DNA from: a virus
IMG/VR virus record: IMGVR_UViG_3300036857_000511
Coordinates: 1-25,398 of that record
Length of the DNA: 25,398 nucleotides
Reading direction: 5' to 3' (one strand)
Below are positions 1,593 through 12,086 of the stretch, piece by piece. Position 1 is the stretch's first letter. Every line of letters begins with the position of its first letter. Under the pieces are notes generated by a model. That model searched no databases. It saw only the letters and a list, made by a program, of their open reading frames with translations, and was not told where the DNA came from. The position numbers and the translations under genes were made by a program.

Positions 1593-1715
1593 CTACCAAA
1601 CCCCGGACACGTGCAAAAAGACTGCTGCCCCAAGCAGCACCGGCAAGATCAGAATGACCATGCACCACGTTGGGTCCGGGTCACTCAGCACTTCGTAAAG
1701 TTTGCTAGCTTTCAC
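1593..1715 (-). CDS. 40-residue single-pass membrane protein
   Basis: GTG starts a 40-residue protein with a soluble N terminus (VKASKLYEVLSDPDP) and one hydrophobic helix at about residues 18-36. The start sits inside a copy of the operon's repeated element, which supplies codons 3-5 (GCT AGC AAA); two other genes start with the same ASK tripeptide. That shared context is the main reason to accept so short a gene. Function unknown. Confidence 0.5.
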   Translation of the reverse strand: MKASKLYEVLSDPDPTWCMVILILPVLLGAAVFLHVSGVW

Positions 1716-1735
1716 GGCACTTATCTCTATCAAGC
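1700..1735 (-). repeat. Start-associated repeat, copy at the 40-residue membrane gene
   Basis: The minus strand reads CTTGATAGAGATAAG, then TGCC, the GTG start, and AAAGCTAGCAAA inside the gene. It shares the GAGATAA core and the downstream GCTAGCAA block with copies at 2822-2853 and 3590-3620, and the CTTGAT-GAGATAA block with 3061-3096. Confidence 0.6.
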
Positions 1736-2359
1736 CGCTTCCATGAATGTCTGGTCGCGTACCTTGTCGAGCCAGCCATTCAGTTTCGACCAGTTCACGT
1801 CTGGGCCGTACTTCAGATAGGTGCCGTCGGCCGAGTCGAACATCGAGACCATCATCGTCAGAAGCCGCCGTTCGCCATTGACGCGACCCATGTGCGTGGG
1901 CTTGCCGTGGTTCCGCGCCCAGCGAGCAGCTGCATAGCCACCATCCTCGCTGAACTTCCACTCATCGCGACCACCGACGAACAGCACGTCAAAGGTGTCG
2001 GGGTTGGGGAAAGCGTCATGGAAGCCGTCCTGAGCGACAAACGCGGCGCGGTATCCAAGGTGACGAATCGTCTCAAGGTAGGGCATCGACAACTGCAGCG
2101 TGGCGAGCGCATCGCCCACCACGTCGGGCGCCGTCGCAAACAGACAGCGGTCACGATAGCGTCGTAACCCCGCTAACCACTCAAGCCAATCGCCGGCATT
2201 CCATTCATCAGGTTTGGCGAACCGCCCGTTGTCCAGACCGAAGCGCCAGAACTGGAACGCTGGCGTCGTCATCCCCATGCCCGGCTGAAACATGATCCCT
2301 AACTCAGGACGCGGGTTCGCGAGCAACGTCTGGGTGATCACGCCGCTGAGATACAGCAC
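1730..2359 (-). CDS. dpdA: DpdA-like DNA 7-deazaguanine transglycosylase (TGT superfamily)
   Basis: The 209-residue protein resembles phage DpdA proteins, relatives of tRNA-guanine transglycosylase that exchange guanine in DNA for a 7-deazaguanine such as preQ0 or preQ1. Visible landmarks are the opening LYLSG, the QPGMG loop (about 25-29), GLDNGRF with a candidate catalytic Asp at about 43, APDVVGD (77-83), FVGGRDEWK with a second candidate Asp at about 132, HMGRVNG (156-162) and DGTYLKYGPD near 178. The usual TGT zinc cysteines are not evident. The GTG start is chosen because LYLSG opens this fold; it overlaps the transporter gene by 56 nt. A tRNA substrate cannot be excluded, but phage context and the neighbouring precursor transporter favour DNA. 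Function is by resemblance, not tested. Confidence 0.75.
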   Translation of the reverse strand: MLYLSGVITQTLLANPRPELGIMFQPGMGMTTPAFQFWRFGLDNGRFAKPDEWNAGDWLEWLAGLRRYRDRCLFATAPDVVGDALATLQLSMPYLETIRHLGYRAAFVAQDGFHDAFPNPDTFDVLFVGGRDEWKFSEDGGYAAARWARNHGKPTHMGRVNGERRLLTMMVSMFDSADGTYLKYGPDVNWSKLNGWLDKVRDQTFMEAA

Positions 2360-2840
2360 GCCAGCCCCACAAGATGACTACCGCGATCGCGGTGACCCAC
2401 AGCTTACCGACTATCTGGCCGGCTAAAAAGTCGAGCGAGCCGAACGCGAGCCAAAGGAAGAGCGCAGAGTCAACGACTAGGCCGACGGCGTTCGACGCTG
2501 CGACTGCTCCGAGCCAGTGCCGCTCATACAGTGGCGTGTAGACAAGGAAGTCCGCTGTCTCGCTGAAGAGGAAGGCGACGCCTGAGGCGATCGCGAGCGG
2601 CCCACTGAGGAAGCCCGACAGGCCAGCGCCGATGATGATCGCGACGTATGTCCAACGCCTGCCGAGCGCATCCTGCGTCAGGTCACGGAACGTGAAAGCG
2701 AGACCCGCGAAATAGACACCAGCGGGGGCCATGAGCCCAAAGCCAACAGGGACGAACCCGAACGTGGTGATCGCCCAGTTGGCCGCAAAGATCGTCGCGA
2801 CGTACGCAACCAGCGGCCAGAACTTGCTAGCTATAACCAT
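2304..2840 (-). CDS. yhhQ: Queuosine-precursor transporter, VUT/YhhQ family
   Basis: The 178-residue protein has about six hydrophobic segments and VUT-family landmarks: FRDLTQDALGRR at about 51-62, an SETADFLVY segment at 93-101, and a conserved loop before the last helices. Known members import preQ0 or preQ1 across the inner membrane. ATG at 2840 is chosen because it lies in the repeated start-associated element (M-V-I-A-S-K); the frame is open further upstream. The start overlaps the previous stop by 14 nt, and the end overlaps the DpdA-like gene by 56 nt, so both should be co-translated. I infer that it feeds the transglycosylase with base. No queC, queD, queE or folE is present in the window. 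Confidence 0.8.
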   Translation of the reverse strand: MVIASKFWPLVAYVATIFAANWAITTFGFVPVGFGLMAPAGVYFAGLAFTFRDLTQDALGRRWTYVAIIIGAGLSGFLSGPLAIASGVAFLFSETADFLVYTPLYERHWLGAVAASNAVGLVVDSALFLWLAFGSLDFLAGQIVGKLWVTAIAVVILWGWRAVSQRRDHPDVAREPAS

Positions 2841-2853
2841 CTTTATCACTGCC
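2822..2853 (-). repeat. Start-associated repeat, copy at the transporter gene
   Basis: The minus strand reads GTGATAAAG, then ATG GTT ATA GCT AGC AAG. The GATAAAGATGGT block matches the copy at 3061-3096, and ATAGCTAGCAA matches the copies at 1700 and 3590. Confidence 0.65.
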
Positions 2854-3081
2854 AAGCAGTCGGACTTCATCGGGTGGATACGGGGCGGCATTGCCCACGC
2901 CTTCACCATCTTCACTGTCGAAGTTGATCAGGATGGTCCCATCGTCAAAAATTTCGTCCACCGTACCGTGATGGTTGGGCGGCGCCGATCCGGTGGCTCT
3001 GAACATGATGTCTCGCATCGCGGCAAGCGCGGGATCGGTCACGAATACCCGGTCGCCGGGCTTGATAGATCTAAGCACCAT
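2827..3081 (-). CDS. Small beta-rich hypothetical protein (SH3-like composition)
   Basis: ATG gives 84 residues; an in-frame TTG 15 nt upstream is possible. The N terminus KPGDRVFVTDP and the segment HHGTVDEIFDDGTILINFD alternate hydrophobic strands with charged turns, as in small SH3-like or KOW-like barrels. It starts within a start-associated element (ATGGTGCTTAGATC) and its stop lies 14 nt inside the transporter gene. No specific function is supported. Confidence 0.6.
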   Translation of the reverse strand: MVLRSIKPGDRVFVTDPALAAMRDIMFRATGSAPPNHHGTVDEIFDDGTILINFDSEDGEGVGNAAPYPPDEVRLLGSDKDGYS

Positions 3082-3096
3082 CTTTATCTCGATCAA
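3061..3096 (-). repeat. Start-associated repeat, copy at the SH3-like gene
   Basis: The minus strand reads CTTGATCGAGATAAAG and then ATGGTGCTTAGATCTATCAA. It joins the CTTGAT-GAGATAA half seen at 1700-1735 to the ATGGTGCTTA half seen at 3590-3620, so it links the two versions of the element. Confidence 0.6.
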
Positions 3097-3251
3097 GAAC
3101 GCTTTGTGAACGCGCCTTGTCCTCGAAAAGGGTTATAAGCGCGGTGCTCTGCTGGGTTCTGCCAAGCATCTTTGAATGCCATCCAGTCAAGGAGGCGGGA
3201 CGCCTTCGTCCGAAAGACGCTCACGTTCCCAACGCTGAATTTCCTGCTCAT
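3093..3251 (-). CDS. Possible small hypothetical protein (start uncertain)
   Basis: From ATG at 3251 the frame gives 52 residues (MSRKFSVGNV to AFTKRS) with several aromatic and basic residues. The frame is open to a TTG at 3323. It overlaps the gene at 3187-3417 in another frame by 65 nt, more than is usual in this operon. A later ATG at 3182 would avoid the overlap and leave 29 residues. The composition looks coding, but the start is unresolved and no family was recognised. Confidence 0.35.
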   Translation of the reverse strand: MSRKFSVGNVSVFRTKASRLLDWMAFKDAWQNPAEHRAYNPFRGQGAFTKRS

Positions 3252-3419: not shown

Positions 3420-3611
3420 TTACCCTGCACAGTCTGGGCAAATGGCCGGTTCGGCTTGCCAGTCCAAAATGTCCATCGTCCAGTCACGCGCATCGCTCCA
3501 TTCAAAGCACAGCACGCAGCACGCAGTCGCATGGCCACACTCCCAATTGATCGAGTAACTCGCCTCATACTCGCACCAGGCGCACTCGAGTTTGCTAGCT
3601 ATAAGCACCAT
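3420..3611 (-). CDS. Cysteine-rich small zinc-binding protein
   Basis: The 63-residue product has CAWCEYE near residue 10, CGHATACCVLC in the middle and a terminal CPDC. These pairs could build one or two zinc knuckles. The gene starts in a start-associated element (M-V-L-I-A-S-K) and its ATG shares a base with the upstream TAA (TAATG). Small zinc proteins of this sort are common in phage accessory operons. The target is unknown. Confidence 0.6.
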   Translation of the reverse strand: MVLIASKLECAWCEYEASYSINWECGHATACCVLCFEWSDARDWTMDILDWQAEPAICPDCAG

Positions 3612-3620
3612 TATCGTGAG
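3590..3620 (-). repeat. Start-associated repeat, copy at the cysteine-rich gene
   Basis: The minus strand reads CACGATAATGGTGCTTA followed by TAGCTAGCAAACTC. It has the ATGGTGCTTA block of the copy at 3061 and the GCTAGCAAACT block of the copy at 1700. Confidence 0.6.
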
Positions 3621-3907: not shown

Positions 3908-4095
3908 CAGCGCATCCAGATCGATGACATGATGGTCGAACGCAGGGCCGAGCGAACGATCTCGCGGCGCAGCTCGGGATCGGCGTCAATTCGCTCGACA
4001 AGCCCGGCGAAGATGCTATCGAGCTGGTCCTCAATGTGCTGTTCGCGGATCGCGTCGTTGACCAGATCGCGAATGCGGTCGCGTGCCTCAGTCAC
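3907..4095 (-). CDS. Small acidic/basic helical hypothetical protein
   Basis: GTG at 4095 starts a 62-residue protein (MTEARDRIRDLV) made almost wholly of charged residues and spaced leucine, isoleucine and valine, so it is probably alpha-helical. It ends in an ATGA overlap with the next gene. Its first codons lie at the edge of the 65-bp duplicated segment that also occurs after the HTH gene at 4846. No family was recognised. Confidence 0.5.
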   Translation of the reverse strand: MTEARDRIRDLVNDAIREQHIEDQLDSIFAGLVERIDADPELRREIVRSALRSTIMSSIWMR

Positions 4096-4162
4096 GTCGT
4101 CTCGCCCTCTTTCTGGCGACCAACCATCGCTTGGCCAGCCATTCGTCGAATGTTTCAGTCAT
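4086..4162 (-). repeat. Partial duplicate of the HTH gene at 4840-5073
   Basis: Bases 4086-4150 match 4840-4908 at about nine positions in ten, with a 4-nt gap. Bases 4151-4162 equal the 5' end of the same gene at 5062-5073. Together they are a copy of that gene with its middle removed. Confidence 0.75.
4088..4162 (-). pseudogene. Gutted copy of the excisionase-like HTH gene
   Basis: The 24-codon frame starts MTETFDEWLAKR. This joins residues 1-4 of the gene at 4846-5073 directly to its residues 56-63, so about 51 codons, including the whole helix-turn-helix, are missing. A further 4-nt deletion shifts the frame at the end (RWLVARKRARRRD). Its ATG overlaps the stop of the upstream 201-residue gene. 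It may still be translated as a coupling peptide but cannot bind DNA in the original way. Confidence 0.6.
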
Positions 4163-4764: not shown

Positions 4765-4845
4765 GCGGTGACGAGTTCGCGTTCCGCCACGCCGTAGAGC
4801 TCAAGCATCTTTCGGCCAAGCTCTACTAGTTCCTGCCTACCTCAG

Positions 4846-5073
4846 TCACGTCGTCTCGTCCTCTCTCTGGCGGCCAACCATTGCGCGCTTGGCGAGCCAT
4901 TCGTCGAACAAGCGCGCGTGGATGCGCAACTGGTGGGGCCCGACGATGACCGGAAAGCCCGGCTCGTACGTCCATTCGTAGATACGGTCTAACGAGACCT
5001 GGCACAGTTCCGCGGCTTGCTTCGGTGTGAGCAGGATCACTCCGTCGGAGAAGCTGTCGTGTGTTTCAGTCAT
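4846..5073 (-). CDS. Excisionase-like helix-turn-helix protein
   Basis: The 75-residue protein has the layout of the HTH_17/Xis-like family: LLTPKQAAELCQVSLDRIYEW at about 14-34, a short wing with PVIVGPHQLRI, then the terminal helix RLFDEWLAKR. Such proteins bind DNA and serve as excisionases, recombination directionality factors or regulators. With a serine integrase in the same element, a directionality-factor role is possible but unproven. ATG overlaps the end of the zinc-finger gene by 8 nt. A truncated copy exists at 4088-4162. Confidence 0.65.
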   Translation of the reverse strand: MTETHDSFSDGVILLTPKQAAELCQVSLDRIYEWTYEPGFPVIVGPHQLRIHARLFDEWLAKRAMVGRQREDETT

Positions 5074-5437: not shown

Positions 5438-6082
5438 CTATGAGCTTGTTTCCAAGTCAAGCTTTGGACGGCCCATGCGACGAATGCCGAATTGACGACG
5501 TCGACCACGCATCTCATCACCGCTTCTTTCGAAGCGCTCGCTACGCTCGCTCTCCTTCTTTGGTCGATTCGATCGGTGCGCCGATGAGTTCGACGGCTCC
5601 GATGGCGCGACTGTTGATTCCGCTGGCTGACGAACAGGCGGTTCTGGCAGGTTGCTAAGCGGACCCACGCCCGGCGGGTGACCACCGATTTTTGTTGATG
5701 AATCCCCAGGATCGCCGGTCACATTCATGAATCCCTGCGTCACGCGGCCACCGCGTTTGATGGCCGCCGGGCCGCTATTCGTGATCTGTGCAGGGGTACG
5801 CAACGTAAAGCGGAATGGTCGTGGCTTGACCCCGTTGTCGAATTGGAGCAGCACGTCCTGGACTGAGCCAGGCGTGAAATAGACGTACCGCTTACCGACC
5901 CTGTTGTCCGTCCATCGGATTGTGGCCAGATCAACGACGACTGAGCGCGCGTGGGGAAGCGCGGCTTTGATGGCGTCAGCGATCATGCAGTGCGACGAAT
6001 CGAGAGGGATCGCGGCGTCGATCAGAGGTTCTGTCACGTTGACGTCGACGCGCTTCAGTTTCTCGCCGTTCTCGGATTCCAT
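5438..6082 (-). CDS. Conserved phage-type protein of unknown function, first gene under the triple-operator promoter
   Basis: The 214-residue product has an N-terminal domain (about 10-97) with the pattern C-M-I-A-D-A-I-K-A-A-L followed by VDLATIRW, a YVYFTP strand and a final FDNG...PRPFRF. It resembles a short family often met in actinobacterial phages and plasmids, with no function known to me. The remainder is low-complexity, Pro/Ser-rich and basic, with an ERSERFERSG repeat and a GRRRQFGIRRMGR tail that could bind nucleic acid. ATG at 6082 follows an untranslated region of about 40 nt containing an operator palindrome. Confidence 0.55.
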   Translation of the reverse strand: MESENGEKLKRVDVNVTEPLIDAAIPLDSSHCMIADAIKAALPHARSVVVDLATIRWTDNRVGKRYVYFTPGSVQDVLLQFDNGVKPRPFRFTLRTPAQITNSGPAAIKRGGRVTQGFMNVTGDPGDSSTKIGGHPPGVGPLSNLPEPPVRQPAESTVAPSEPSNSSAHRSNRPKKESERSERFERSGDEMRGRRRQFGIRRMGRPKLDLETSS

Positions 6083-6091
6083 GGCGACCTC

Positions 6092-6163
6092 GTGTAGATT
6101 TTCTACACGCCGTAGCTTCAGCGTGTGTAGAAATTGTACTCAGCCTCTGTAGATTTTCTACAC
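6092..6163 (-). promoter_or_regulatory. Leftward promoter with three operator-like palindromes
   Basis: Site 1 (6092-6108) is the perfect inverted repeat GTGTAGATTTTCTACAC with 7-bp arms. Site 3 (6147-6163) is CTGTAGATTTTCTACAC with 6-bp arms. Site 2 (6125-6139, GTGTAGAAATTGTAC) keeps the left arm only. On the minus strand a near-consensus -10 box TACAAT (6133-6138) lies in site 2. Site 3 covers the -35 region, which has only a weak match, and site 1 lies in the leader of the gene at 5438-6082. This is the layout of a repressible promoter. The repressor is not identified. Confidence 0.65.
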
Positions 6164-6226
6164 GGGCTGAGTCGGGATGCCGGCATGCTGGCTCAATCCC
6201 AGGCAGCCGCGCCTGCAGGGTGTCGG

Positions 6227-7388: not shown

Positions 7389-8936
7389 TTGGACTACACT
7401 CGTTTCGTGACCATCGATCTGACGTATACGCGCGTGAGTACTTTCGAGCAGAGCAAGGAAGGCCTGTCCCTCGACATGCAAGCTAGAGAGACCGTGCGGC
7501 TCGTCGACCAGCGCCGCTCGTATCTCGGCGGCCAGTTCTCCGATGTCCTCAGCGGCGCGCGCTCGGACCGACCTGGCTATCAGGCGTTGCTCGCCGAGAT
7601 TCGCCGCCTGCGGCACGCAGGCGAGCGCGTGGCCGTCATCGTCTGGCGTCTGGATCGCTTCGGTCGCGACCTGGAGGAGCGCGCGCGCTCGTGGAAAGAG
7701 CTCGCCAAACTCGAGGTCACGCTGCACAGCGTCAGTGAAGGTGGCCACGCCATCGACGAGACGACCGCGTACGCGATGGCCTTCGCCGCCCAGGTGCAGC
7801 TCACCAGCATCCGCCAGAACATCAAGGGCGCGCTCAAGAACGCGCGCAGCCTGGGCTGGTGGACCAGCGGCATCTGTCCCTACGGCTACATCTGGCGGCC
7901 GCGAACCGATGATGAGCGCGCGCGTGGCGCACCCAAGGGTGTGCTGGATGTCGACCCGGTGGCTGCGCCGCGCGTGCTCGAGGCGTTCCAGCGTCTGGCA
8001 GACGGCGCCTCTGCGGGCAGTGTCCACAAGTGGCTGTCGAGCCTGTCCGACGACGATCGCCGCGGGCGCGCCATGCACCGTCGCAGCGTGTTTTTGATGT
8101 TCAAGGCGCCGGTGTACATGGCCAGGTTCGAGTCCGATGGACCCGAGGGTCAATGGCCAGCGATTGTGGATGAGAAAACCTGGCGCAAGGCGCAGCATGT
8201 GTTCGACGGTCATAAGGTTGGCTCTGGAAAACGCGCGGCGACAGGTCGGTACCTGCTGAGCGGTTTTCTCAAGTGCCCGGTGTGCGGCCATGCGATGGTG
8301 GGTACGAGTGTGGGCAGCAGCAAGCGGCATCAGGTGCGCTACCGCTGCAAGGCGCGCGAATACGGCACGTCGTGCGGCCAGACGGTGACAGTCGCGCGCG
8401 TCGATCGGGACGTGCTCGCGCGTGTCGCTGAATTGGTGGACTGGCTGGTCGATCCAGTCAAGCGCGCGCAGCTCGTTGCCAGGTGGAACGCCAGCCGCGC
8501 GAAGGTGTTCCCCAATGAACAACGCGAGCGGCGCCAGATCGAACGTGAGCGCGAGCGCGAGCGGACGCGGCTCATGCAGGCCATCGACAAGTGGAACGAC
8601 GGCAAACTGTCCGACGCGGAGTATTACGCGTATCGCGCGACAGTCGAACAGCGACTGCGCTCCGGGGACGAGCGCTTGGCTGCGCTCGCGGCCGAGGTGC
8701 CGCCCGAGCCTGAACTACCCGCGCTGGAGACGTTGCTGCCGCCGGCGCCGGGCTGGCTGCGGATTCTGCGGGAGACCAGCGACATCGAGGCGCGCCGGCG
8801 GGTGCTGAGTGTCTTCGTCAACAGCGTGGTCGCTCACCGCACGAGTTGGGGCCGGTATGACGTTGTCGTCGGCCTGACCCCGCTCGGGGAATGGTTGGCG
8901 ATGTTCACGCCACCAGGACTCGAGGAGGTGAGTTAG
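7389..8936 (+). CDS. int: Large serine recombinase (phage integrase)
   Basis: The 515-residue protein inserts and excises the phage genome by serine recombination. The catalytic domain has YTRVST with nucleophile Ser17, DVLSGARSDRPG near 52-63 and RLDRFGR at 87-93. A recombinase domain follows, with the GYIWRP and VLEAF elements. The zinc ribbon has C296, C299, C320 and C329. A coiled coil rich in RERERE follows, then a C-terminal tail. Length is normal for the large serine integrase family. TTG at 7389 is preceded by TAGGGA; GTG at 7407 is an alternative and still includes Ser17. It points away from the leftward operon. Confidence 0.93.
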   Translation: MDYTRFVTIDLTYTRVSTFEQSKEGLSLDMQARETVRLVDQRRSYLGGQFSDVLSGARSDRPGYQALLAEIRRLRHAGERVAVIVWRLDRFGRDLEERARSWKELAKLEVTLHSVSEGGHAIDETTAYAMAFAAQVQLTSIRQNIKGALKNARSLGWWTSGICPYGYIWRPRTDDERARGAPKGVLDVDPVAAPRVLEAFQRLADGASAGSVHKWLSSLSDDDRRGRAMHRRSVFLMFKAPVYMARFESDGPEGQWPAIVDEKTWRKAQHVFDGHKVGSGKRAATGRYLLSGFLKCPVCGHAMVGTSVGSSKRHQVRYRCKAREYGTSCGQTVTVARVDRDVLARVAELVDWLVDPVKRAQLVARWNASRAKVFPNEQRERRQIERERERERTRLMQAIDKWNDGKLSDAEYYAYRATVEQRLRSGDERLAALAAEVPPEPELPALETLLPPAPGWLRILRETSDIEARRRVLSVFVNSVVAHRTSWGRYDVVVGLTPLGEWLAMFTPPGLEEVS

Positions 8937-9013: not shown

Positions 9014-9059
9014 TGCAAGCGACCGGGCACGGCCTATGCAATCAATCGTGCAATCTGCC
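9014..9059 (+). repeat. TGCAA phased repeat array, locus A
   Basis: Units start at 9014 (TGCAAGCGACCG), 9026 (GGCACGGCCTA), 9037 (TGCAATCAATCG) and 9049 (TGCAATCTGCC), spaced 12, 11 and 12 bp. The first three units match loci C (9892) and D (10379, minus strand) in the same register. It lies in the gap after the integrase and runs into the end of the HTH-PAS gene. Confidence 0.65.
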
Positions 9060-9797
9060 GTCGCGTCCTTGAAACCGGTAGGGTGGCAGCGACGCTTCGT
9101 ACAGGCGCAGAAGGTGCTCCATGTCGAGCACCTCGACCTGGTCGGGGGTCACGCCCTGCCGCAGCACGACCCCCGGCTTGACATTGAACGTCTCGGGCCG
9201 GGTGCGTACGTCATCCTCGGGCTCGCCTGCGGTGGCGTCGACGAAGACGCAGTCGTACTCGTGCCCGTAGGTCACCTGCATGTGCAGCGGCAGGCGCCGC
9301 CCGTCCGCTTGCAGAATGTAGGTGTCGCACTCGCCAATGGGCGGCTCGAGCAGATCGGCGCGCAGGGCCTGGACCAGCTCCGCGAAGCGGTCGTAGTGGG
9401 CCTGTATTTGACGACCGCGGCGGAGCGCGACTCGGACATTCTGACCGATGAGTTCATCGCGCGGCATACCCACCGCGGCACACACCGACGGCGAGACCCA
9501 CTGCAAGATGTGGTCGACGCACGTGATGACCAGTACCAGGTGATCCTCGGGCGGTGGCCCCAGGCTCGGATACCAGGGCATACCCACCGCGCTCAGGTAG
9601 CGAAGTAAGGTATGCGGAGCCTTGTGCCAGTGCTCGCAAAACGCCGTTTTGGTCCGCGGTCGTTGAAGAACACGCGCGGTGGCGTAGGTCCTGTCCATGA
9701 TGTCTTTGATGGGCCACTGGGGTCCGCGTGGGGTGCCGGCGGGACTGTGCCACGGCTGTTGCCTGCTCTGCATCAGATCAAACTGTGAGCGCTCCAT
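9042..9797 (-). CDS. HTH-PAS-like regulatory protein
   Basis: The 251-residue protein has a PAS-like domain at about residues 86-190: ITCVDHILQWVSPSVCAAVG, then MPRDELIGQNV, and later YILQADGRRLPLHMQV. That is the usual PAS order of beta strands, the DELIG helix turn and the DGR strand. Before it, TKTAFCEHWHKAPHTLLRYL (about 50-69) resembles a helix-turn-helix. No kinase or cyclase output domain is present. I infer a sensor-regulator beside the lysogeny genes. The start has an AAGGGGAA ribosome-binding site. A possible promoter, TTGCAC, 17 nt, then TAGGTA, overlaps repeat array C upstream. Confidence 0.6.
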   Translation of the reverse strand: MERSQFDLMQSRQQPWHSPAGTPRGPQWPIKDIMDRTYATARVLQRPRTKTAFCEHWHKAPHTLLRYLSAVGMPWYPSLGPPPEDHLVLVITCVDHILQWVSPSVCAAVGMPRDELIGQNVRVALRRGRQIQAHYDRFAELVQALRADLLEPPIGECDTYILQADGRRLPLHMQVTYGHEYDCVFVDATAGEPEDDVRTRPETFNVKPGVVLRQGVTPDQVEVLDMEHLLRLYEASLPPYRFQGRDGRLHD

Positions 9798-11669: not shown

Positions 11670-12086
11670 GTGGCCAAAGCGATGGGTGTGGCCGGCTTCG
11701 TGCTCGGCGTGCTGGTCACCACGGTGGCCGGCGCGGCGCTCGGCTCGCACGCCGCCGGTGATGGTGGTGCGGCACTGGAGTCGCCACCGGAGGACACGCC
11801 GGTGGTGGCTGAGACTGCGAAAACGACACCGGAGCCGGCGTATGGTGTGTTCGACCGGCTGGCGGCATGTGAGAGTTCGGGCCGCTGGTCGGTCAACACC
11901 GGCAACGGCTATTTCGGCGGACTCCAGCAGGATTTGGTGTTCTGGCGGCGCTATGGTGGACTGGCGTACGCGCCGCGGCCGGACCTCGCCAGTCGCGCTG
12001 CTCAGATCGCTGTGGCCCAACGCGGGCTTAGTGTGCAGGGCTGGAAGGCATGGCCCGCGTGCGCGCGGGCGTTGGGGCTGAGATGA
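11670..12086 (+). CDS. Membrane-anchored Rpf-like muralytic transglycosylase
   Basis: The 138-residue protein has an N-terminal membrane segment (about 6-25), a spacer of Asp, Glu and Pro, and then an Rpf domain (59-137). Visible signatures are FDRLAACESSG with the catalytic Glu68, WSVNTGNGYFGGLQ (74-86), YAPRPDLASRAAQIAVA, and a closing WPAC. Cys67 and Cys131 match the conserved Rpf disulfide. The family cleaves peptidoglycan glycan strands in a lysozyme-like fold. It lies among recombination genes rather than lysis genes, so it may remodel the wall during infection or release phage. GTG follows the upstream stop by one base. Confidence 0.85.
   Translation: MAKAMGVAGFVLGVLVTTVAGAALGSHAAGDGGAALESPPEDTPVVAETAKTTPEPAYGVFDRLAACESSGRWSVNTGNGYFGGLQQDLVFWRRYGGLAYAPRPDLASRAAQIAVAQRGLSVQGWKAWPACARALGLR

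What the first reader, a model, noticed from the sequence alone, without database searches (positions are those of the whole stretch)
1730..2840. Transporter and DpdA-like transglycosylase overlap: a possible salvage-fed 7-deazaguanine DNA modification
A YhhQ/VUT-family precursor transporter overlaps by 56 nt a TGT-fold protein with DpdA landmarks (GLDNG, GGRDEWK, DGTYLKYGPD). DpdA enzymes exchange guanine for 7-deazaguanine in phage DNA and can protect it from restriction. No preQ0 synthesis gene is present, so the phage may import base. The two-gene architecture and the missing zinc cysteines would make it a minimal variant.
Basis: partly seen in the sequence, partly recalled or inferred. 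Interest (0 to 1): 0.85.

Follow-up and report, generated by a model that had tools for sequence, protein, structure and literature searches.

The report
Short phage DpdA with base importer
Two overlapping phage genes encode a membrane importer for queuosine-type bases and an unusually small enzyme predicted to swap guanine in DNA for such a base; relatives in many phages carry the enzyme with either the importer or the genes that make the base, which suggests that phages can buy or make the same DNA disguise.

Summary
Window 1730-2359(-) encodes a 209-aa protein that overlaps by 56 nt a Vut_1/QPTR (YhhQ-type) transporter (2304-2840, -). The 209-aa protein has no named family (phrog_15826, unknown function). 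AlphaFold2 models it as a complete (beta/alpha)8 barrel (pLDDT 94), and tRNA-guanine transglycosylases dominate the PDB matches. D43, P78, D79, Q110, G130, H156 and D178 are invariant in 77 relatives, and profile alignment links the family to canonical phage DpdA.

Genomic context is the strongest evidence. Of 49 viral lineages, 29 carry the transporter immediately upstream (median gap about 0 nt). Some insert a QueF-like gene between the two. Others have no transporter and carry queC-queE-queD directly before the same gene instead. QueC and transporter rarely co-occur (1 of 54 records). This ties the small enzyme to 7-deazaguanine chemistry and suggests interchangeable supply modules: salvage, salvage plus conversion, or synthesis. 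The window is the plain salvage type; no QueC, QueD or canonical DpdA was found in it or in five 38-43 kb close relatives.

Modification of DNA is not shown. I rate it a new variant of a known kind.

The parts
1730..2359 (-). Short DpdA-like transglycosylase, 209 aa, GTG start; phrog_15826
   Evidence: phrog_15826, 1.1e-46; invariant residues; AF2 pLDDT 94, eight strands; Foldseek TGT and phage queuine tRNA-ribosyltransferases; dN/dS 0.06-0.11 against the five closest relatives; profile match to DpdA
2304..2840 (-). Vut_1/QPTR (YhhQ-type) six-helix queuosine-precursor transporter, 178 aa from ATG 2840 (alternative GTG at 2915)
   Evidence: PF02592 above gathering score; TIGR00697 matched by 44 of 44 relatives, but 25.7 bits against the equivalog cut-off of 50.95 for the window protein; AF2 pLDDT 95, six long helices
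2304..2359 (-). 56-nt overlap of the two coding regions (translational coupling likely)
   Evidence: overlaps of 10-100 nt or start/stop contact are the commonest arrangement in relatives
2231..2233 (-). Codon of D43 in the D-N-G motif, aligned with the DSG motif of canonical DpdA; compared with TGT general base D102 by motif
   Evidence: 77/77 conserved; alignment
1826..1828 (-). Codon of D178, aligned with the Asp of the canonical DpdA CDSSS motif and the last Asp of TGT DMFD (nucleophile)
   Evidence: 77/77 conserved; alignments
2830..3082 (-). Neighbouring 84-aa ORF upstream of the transporter (starts at ATG 3082, ends just before 2840); not part of the proposed module
   Evidence: No family above cut-off

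Best explanation
A salvage-type 7-deazaguanine DNA-modification module. The transporter brings a queuosine-precursor base (preQ0 or preQ1) into the infected cell. The short DpdA-like enzyme, a TGT-fold barrel reduced to about 200 residues, exchanges guanine in the phage's own DNA for that base through a covalent Asp (D178) intermediate, with D43 as general acid/base and D79, Q110 and G129-G130 holding the base. The modified DNA resists host restriction. Shown by computation: the ORFs, overlap, selection, fold model, conserved active-site set, the recurrent transporter pairing, and replacement of the transporter by queC-queE-queD (or addition of a queF-like gene) in the same operon. Inferred: catalysis, DNA rather than RNA as substrate, which base is imported, and protection from restriction.
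For: Fold: AF2 pLDDT 94, pTM 0.90, eight strands. Foldseek PDB: TGT at ranks 2-6 and in nearly all of the top 50; BFVD: phage queuine tRNA-ribosyltransferases including Sonali's canonical DpdA. Profile-profile to canonical phage DpdA: probability 93%, E 4e-7 for one comparison, with D43, G129-G130, H156 and D178 aligned to DpdA motifs. One 226-aa phage DpdA (RHph_N3_2) matches both phrog_887 (7e-51) and phrog_15826 (7e-5). Active-site set invariant in 77 sequences. Transporter directly upstream in 29 of 49 viral lineages and directly downstream in 4 more loci; 96 of 50,697 phage records carry the transporter at all, against 15 of 24 with the small enzyme. queC-queE-queD directly upstream of the small gene in L036/L037, L050, L051, L058, L059, all without transporter (some loci are cut short upstream); L036 and L058 records lack canonical DpdA by phrog_887. 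QueF-like gene between transporter and enzyme in Aoka and seven other loci. Canonical DpdA sits next to the same transporter type in RHph_N3_2, Pam5, phiLM21, Flyfo and PEAT2. Literature: DpdA inserts 7-deazaguanines in phage DNA, deletion of dpdA in CAjan abolishes it, and modified DNA resists restriction (PMC6884629).
Against: No chemistry was measured. Three close relatives of the window's enzyme (L019-L021, 81-83% identical) have neither transporter nor QueC, so the transporter is dispensable or another supply exists. A chromosomal clade in Nonomuraea and Sphaerisporangium carries a solo enzyme in genomes with no credible TGT, QueC or Vut_1. Sonali, phiG7 and R29Z carry the small protein beside a canonical DpdA, so an accessory role is possible in them, and in phiG7 the small gene is frameshifted. 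The transporter scores below the TIGR00697 equivalog cut-off. TM-scores to TGT are moderate (0.5-0.57), other TIM barrels reach 0.5, and TGT is very redundant in the PDB.
Confidence: 0.74

Rival explanations
1. The pair acts on host tRNA: it imports queuine or preQ1 and places it in tRNA to tune translation during infection.
For: The closest solved structures are tRNA-guanine transglycosylases. QPTR transporters normally feed tRNA queuosine (PMC11130926). Several carrier genomes lack their own TGT.
Against: In zinc-dependent TGT the zinc site lies after the nucleophile; here only about 31 residues follow D178 and 66 of 77 relatives have no Cys there. The profile match is to phage DpdA, not TGT. 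No tailoring gene was looked for beyond the queF-like one; PMC6884629 reports that no QueA/QueG/QueH homologs were found in viruses.
Confidence: 0.1
2. The enzyme is a DNA transglycosylase, but the base comes from the host; the transporter serves something else or only tops up the pool.
For: 17 of 54 records with the enzyme have neither transporter nor QueC, though some are fragments. Nocardia carriers without a phage transporter have a strong chromosomal Vut_1 near TGT. Phage 7-11, DpdA only, carried a trace of dADG (PMC6884629).
Against: Adjacency of the transporter in 29 of 49 lineages, occurrence in swapped gene order, and its replacement by queCED.
Confidence: 0.09
3. The short protein is an accessory subunit, paralogous specificity factor or eraser rather than the main DpdA.
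For: It coexists with canonical DpdA in Sonali, phiG7 and R29Z.
Against: In 51 of 54 records, including two with a queCED operon (L036, L058), no phrog_887 DpdA is found, and the full active-site set is invariant. Other DpdA families (DpdA2, phrog_1279, phrog_7068) were not searched in all of them.
Confidence: 0.07

Closest known systems
Phage DpdA (canonical type, phrog_887 'queuine tRNA-ribosyltransferase'; Hutinet et al. 2019, PMC6884629)
   Same: TGT-like barrel; aligned D-(N/S)-G, GG, H and D-S motifs; next to 7-deazaguanine synthesis genes or a QPTR transporter
   Different: About 200 aa instead of about 230-310; too far apart for a sequence-to-profile hit to phrog_887 (only the profile-profile comparison and one bridging protein link them); own family phrog_15826 of unknown function
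Bacterial tRNA-guanine transglycosylase (PF01702)
   Same: Predicted fold and order of active-site motifs on the strands; closest solved structures
   Different: No Pfam hit; lacks the C-terminal zinc-binding part
QPTR/YhhQ queuosine-precursor transporter (PF02592, COG1738, TIGR00697)
   Same: PF02592 above gathering score; six predicted membrane helices; E. coli YhhQ imports preQ0/preQ1 (PMC11130926)
   Different: Shorter (178 aa), below the TIGR00697 equivalog cut-off; phage-specific cluster phrog_4899
Bacterial dpd islands with YhhQ or preQ0 genes (GATOR-GC, PMC11888242)
   Same: Same logic of DpdA plus a synthesis or import gene; YhhQ reported in about 9% of islands
   Different: Those are islands of up to eleven genes with DpdB and restriction genes; here one or two genes in a phage operon, with no restriction genes noticed beside them
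Pectobacterium phage PEAT2 VUT-DpdA pair
   Same: Overlapping transporter and transglycosylase genes
   Different: Enzyme is a 262-aa phrog_887 type, not the short type

Membership tests
DpdA (phage DNA guanine transglycosylase) | TGT-type (beta/alpha)8 fold | tested here: met
   AF2 pLDDT 94 with eight strands; TGT and phage queuine tRNA-ribosyltransferases among the best Foldseek matches. Predicted model; moderate TM-scores.
DpdA (phage DNA guanine transglycosylase) | Catalytic Asp pair and base-binding motifs | tested here: met
   D43, D79, Q110, G130, D178 in 77/77; D43, G129-G130 and D178 aligned to DpdA motifs; D178 aligned to the DMFD Asp of TGT
DpdA (phage DNA guanine transglycosylase) | Conserved His of DpdA (H196 in phage 9g), absent from DpdA2 | tested here: inconclusive
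   H156 is 77/77 and aligns with the His of phiG7 DpdA KLHAFGIT, but the 9g sequence and numbering were not checked
DpdA (phage DNA guanine transglycosylase) | Detectable homology to named DpdA families | tested here: met
   Profile-profile probability 93% and bridging protein RHph_N3_2; single-sequence hmmscan of the window protein hits only phrog_15826
DpdA (phage DNA guanine transglycosylase) | Linked 7-deazaguanine supply genes | tested here: met
   queCED, QueF-like or QPTR genes in the same operon in relatives
DpdA (phage DNA guanine transglycosylase) | 7-deazaguanine in virion DNA dependent on the gene | not testable with these tools
   Needs LC-MS
Bacterial TGT (PF01702) | PF01702 match and C-terminal zinc site | tested here: not met
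   No Pfam hit; about 31 residues after D178 and no Cys in 66/77
QPTR/YhhQ transporter | PF02592 match above gathering cut-off | tested here: met
   29.6 vs 27.2 bits
QPTR/YhhQ transporter | TIGR00697 equivalog cut-off | tested here: not met
   25.7 vs 50.95 bits; all 44 relatives match the model at E <= 0.01
QPTR/YhhQ transporter | Six membrane helices | tested here: met
   AF2 model, six long helices, pLDDT 95; weak Foldseek resemblance to ECF S components only
QPTR/YhhQ transporter | Transport of preQ0/preQ1 | not testable with these tools
   Needs an uptake or complementation assay

The most novel reading that the evidence does not exclude
A widespread, unnamed family of minimal (about 200 aa) DpdA enzymes works with plug-in supply cassettes at one operon position: queC-queE-queD (make), transporter (buy) or transporter plus QueF-like (buy and convert). 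The salvage form would let phages modify their DNA in hosts that cannot make the base, using preQ0 released by other bacteria, so a virus's restriction resistance would depend on neighbouring microbes.
Probability: 0.4. Interest if true: 0.75.

Novelty: new variant of a known kind. Interest (0 to 1): 0.58.

Why it matters
Hutinet et al. left 76 DpdA-only phages unexplained and saw no correlation of YhhQ with any phage group (PMC6884629). Here the transporter correlates strongly with one short DpdA family and substitutes for the synthesis genes. That makes salvage-dependent phage DNA modification directly testable, for instance in cluster P mycobacteriophages on M. smegmatis, a host reported to lack the preQ0 pathway: feed preQ0 or not, then measure the DNA. 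It would also show a viral defence that depends on a metabolite from outside the infected cell.

Tried and rejected
Idea that the second transglycosylase explains the two preQ0 motifs of phage CAjan (recalled paper, not held): among E. coli phages tblastn found the short family only in phiG7 and SHIN8, with the phiG7 copy frameshifted, so dropped. A preQ1 riboswitch upstream: Rfam scan found nothing credible. Direct PDB sequence search: no hit for the single sequence and only unrelated weak hits for the profile. A first QueF-like search used a seed carrying out-of-frame transporter residues and gave false hits; repeated with clean seeds. Conserved partner genes in the Nocardia/Nonomuraea clade: none found. 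Host from terminase: no close phage relative, all below 60% identity. EAL-domain hits of six relatives (best E 4e-4) taken as general TIM-barrel resemblance. Two papers that probably bear on the family (Cui et al. 2023; de Crecy-Lagard et al. 2024) are not in the library, so I could not check whether their DpdA subfamilies include this one.

Full report
OBSERVATION. The window is a 25.4-kb virus record. On its minus strand the ORF 2359->1730 (209 aa, GTG start) overlaps by 56 nt the ORF that ends at 2304. The upstream ORF is a Vut_1 transporter above the Pfam gathering score and most likely starts at ATG 2840. The six nearest relatives encode the 209-aa protein with the same GTG start. dN/dS is 0.06-0.11 for the enzyme against the five closest (0.24 against the more distant L022) and 0.12-0.19 for the transporter. 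The pair is real and under selection.

WHAT THE 209-AA PROTEIN IS. No Pfam or NCBIfam model names it; PHROGs has it as phrog_15826, unknown function. tblastn finds relatives in Arthrobacter phages Aoka and Sonali, Rhodococcus phage ReqiPine5, cluster P mycobacteriophages, cyanophages, Erythrobacter phages, two E. coli phages and a Vibrio phage; several are labelled 'DpdA-like tRNA-guanine transglycosylase' by annotators. IMG/VR holds at least 527 contigs with relatives (80 fetched), and 71 loci were found in bacterial genomes, mostly Actinomycetota, Burkholderiaceae and some Chloroflexota. From 77 sequences AlphaFold2 gives a confident barrel (pLDDT 94, pTM 0.90) with eight strands. Foldseek against the PDB returns tRNA-guanine transglycosylase at ranks 2-6 (E about 2-6e-4) and for nearly all of the top 50; the TM-scores are moderate (about 0.5) and TGT is over-represented in the PDB. 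Against viral models it finds phage queuine tRNA-ribosyltransferases, including Sonali's canonical DpdA. Profile-profile comparison with nine canonical phage DpdA proteins gives 93% probability and aligns D43, G129-G130, H156 and D178 with the DpdA motifs; comparison with TGT alone aligns only the C-terminal half, with D178 on the nucleophile Asp. Invariant in all 77: D43, P78, D79, Q110, F127, G130, H156, G158, N161, D178, G179. Placing D79 and Q110 as base-binding residues rests on motif order and on my knowledge of TGT, not on a structural superposition.

ZINC SITE. Only about 31 residues follow D178, and 66 of 77 relatives have no Cys there.

CONTEXT. At 70% clustering 29 of 49 viral lineages have the same transporter immediately upstream on the same strand, usually overlapping or touching, and four loci have it directly downstream. 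In the annotated phage collection 96 of 50,697 records carry the transporter, but 15 of 24 records with the short enzyme do (Fisher 6e-36, records not independent). Lineages without a transporter include L036/L037, L050, L051, L058 and L059, where queC-queE-queD lie directly upstream in the same order (some of these loci are cut short upstream). In L036 and L058 no canonical DpdA (phrog_887) is found. In Aoka and seven other loci with a transporter a short QueF-like gene lies between transporter and enzyme. Over 54 records, 32 have Vut_1, 6 have QueC and 1 has both (phiG7, with Vut_1 below the cut-off; Fisher p 0.036). In phages without the short enzyme, five of seven transporter genes checked touch or lie beside a canonical DpdA (RHph_N3_2, Pam5, phiLM21, Flyfo, PEAT2), one lies a few genes away (RHph_X2_30) and one has none nearby (RHph_Y55).

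MECHANISM. The simplest reading is that the enzyme uses a 7-deazaguanine base and that transporter, transporter plus QueF-like, or queCED are alternative supplies. The window has the transporter-only form, and neither it nor five relatives of 38-43 kb contain QueC, QueD or canonical DpdA. DNA as the substrate is inferred from the relation to DpdA, from the absence of the zinc site and from published DpdA biology (PMC6884629), not shown here. The transporter model has six long helices, and QPTR members import preQ0/preQ1 or queuine (PMC11130926), so which base is imported is open.

UNEXPLAINED. L019-L021, 81-83% identical to the window enzyme, lack both transporter and QueC. Nonomuraea and Sphaerisporangium loci carry the enzyme alone in genomes with no credible source. 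Sonali, phiG7 and R29Z carry it beside canonical DpdA.

KNOWN VERSUS NEW. DpdA, YhhQ and the idea of uptake are known: Hutinet et al. proposed uptake for DpdA-only phages but found no correlation of YhhQ with any group, and found phage Orion unmodified on M. smegmatis because neither phage nor host makes preQ0 (PMC6884629). What I did not find described in the papers I could read is the short family as such and its exchangeable supply genes. Two likely relevant papers could not be read.

Noticed in passing
window 1702-1735, 2824-2857, 3057-3097, 3592-3615 (weaker 1252-1285): Successive minus-strand genes begin with a shared 24-34 nt sequence spanning ribosome site, start codon and first codons (like GATAAAGATGGTTATAGCTAGCAAG, giving M-V-(L)-I-A-S-K). 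The GCTAGCAA core was found only once, at a locus edge, among seven close relatives.
   Followed up: partly
window 6093-6164: Copies of the palindrome GTGTAGAAAATCTACAC (two exact, one partial) just upstream of ORF 5438-6082(-): a candidate operator.
   Followed up: no
window 4081-4150 and 4835-4908: Near-identical 50-nt direct repeats (88%) around the beginnings or ends of small ORFs, suggesting a partial gene duplication.
   Followed up: no
window 7389-8936: Serine recombinase (PF00239, zinc ribbon, recombinase): the phage is probably temperate. A PF06737 transglycosylase-like domain lies at 11670-12083.
   Followed up: partly
window 9042-9797(-): A phage-encoded protein with a weak PAS-domain match below the curated cut-off.
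   Followed up: no
L008 4607-4936 (Arthrobacter phage Aoka gp39, 'hypothetical protein'): A short QueF-like protein (PF14489 above cut-off) between transporter and DpdA-like gene; the C-x6-D, ELH and SHE motifs resemble the QueF active site from memory. Same slot in seven other loci.
   Followed up: yes
L014 5923-6515 (phiG7), L015 4767-5351 (R29Z), L009 5001-5618 (Sonali): The short DpdA-like protein coexists with canonical DpdA and preQ0 genes; in phiG7 it is split by a frameshift, and the SHIN8 match is likewise split over two annotated ORFs.
   Followed up: partly
L113, L116, L117 and other Nonomuraea/Nocardia loci: A well-supported clade of chromosomal solo copies without transporter, queCED or a conserved partner.
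   Followed up: partly
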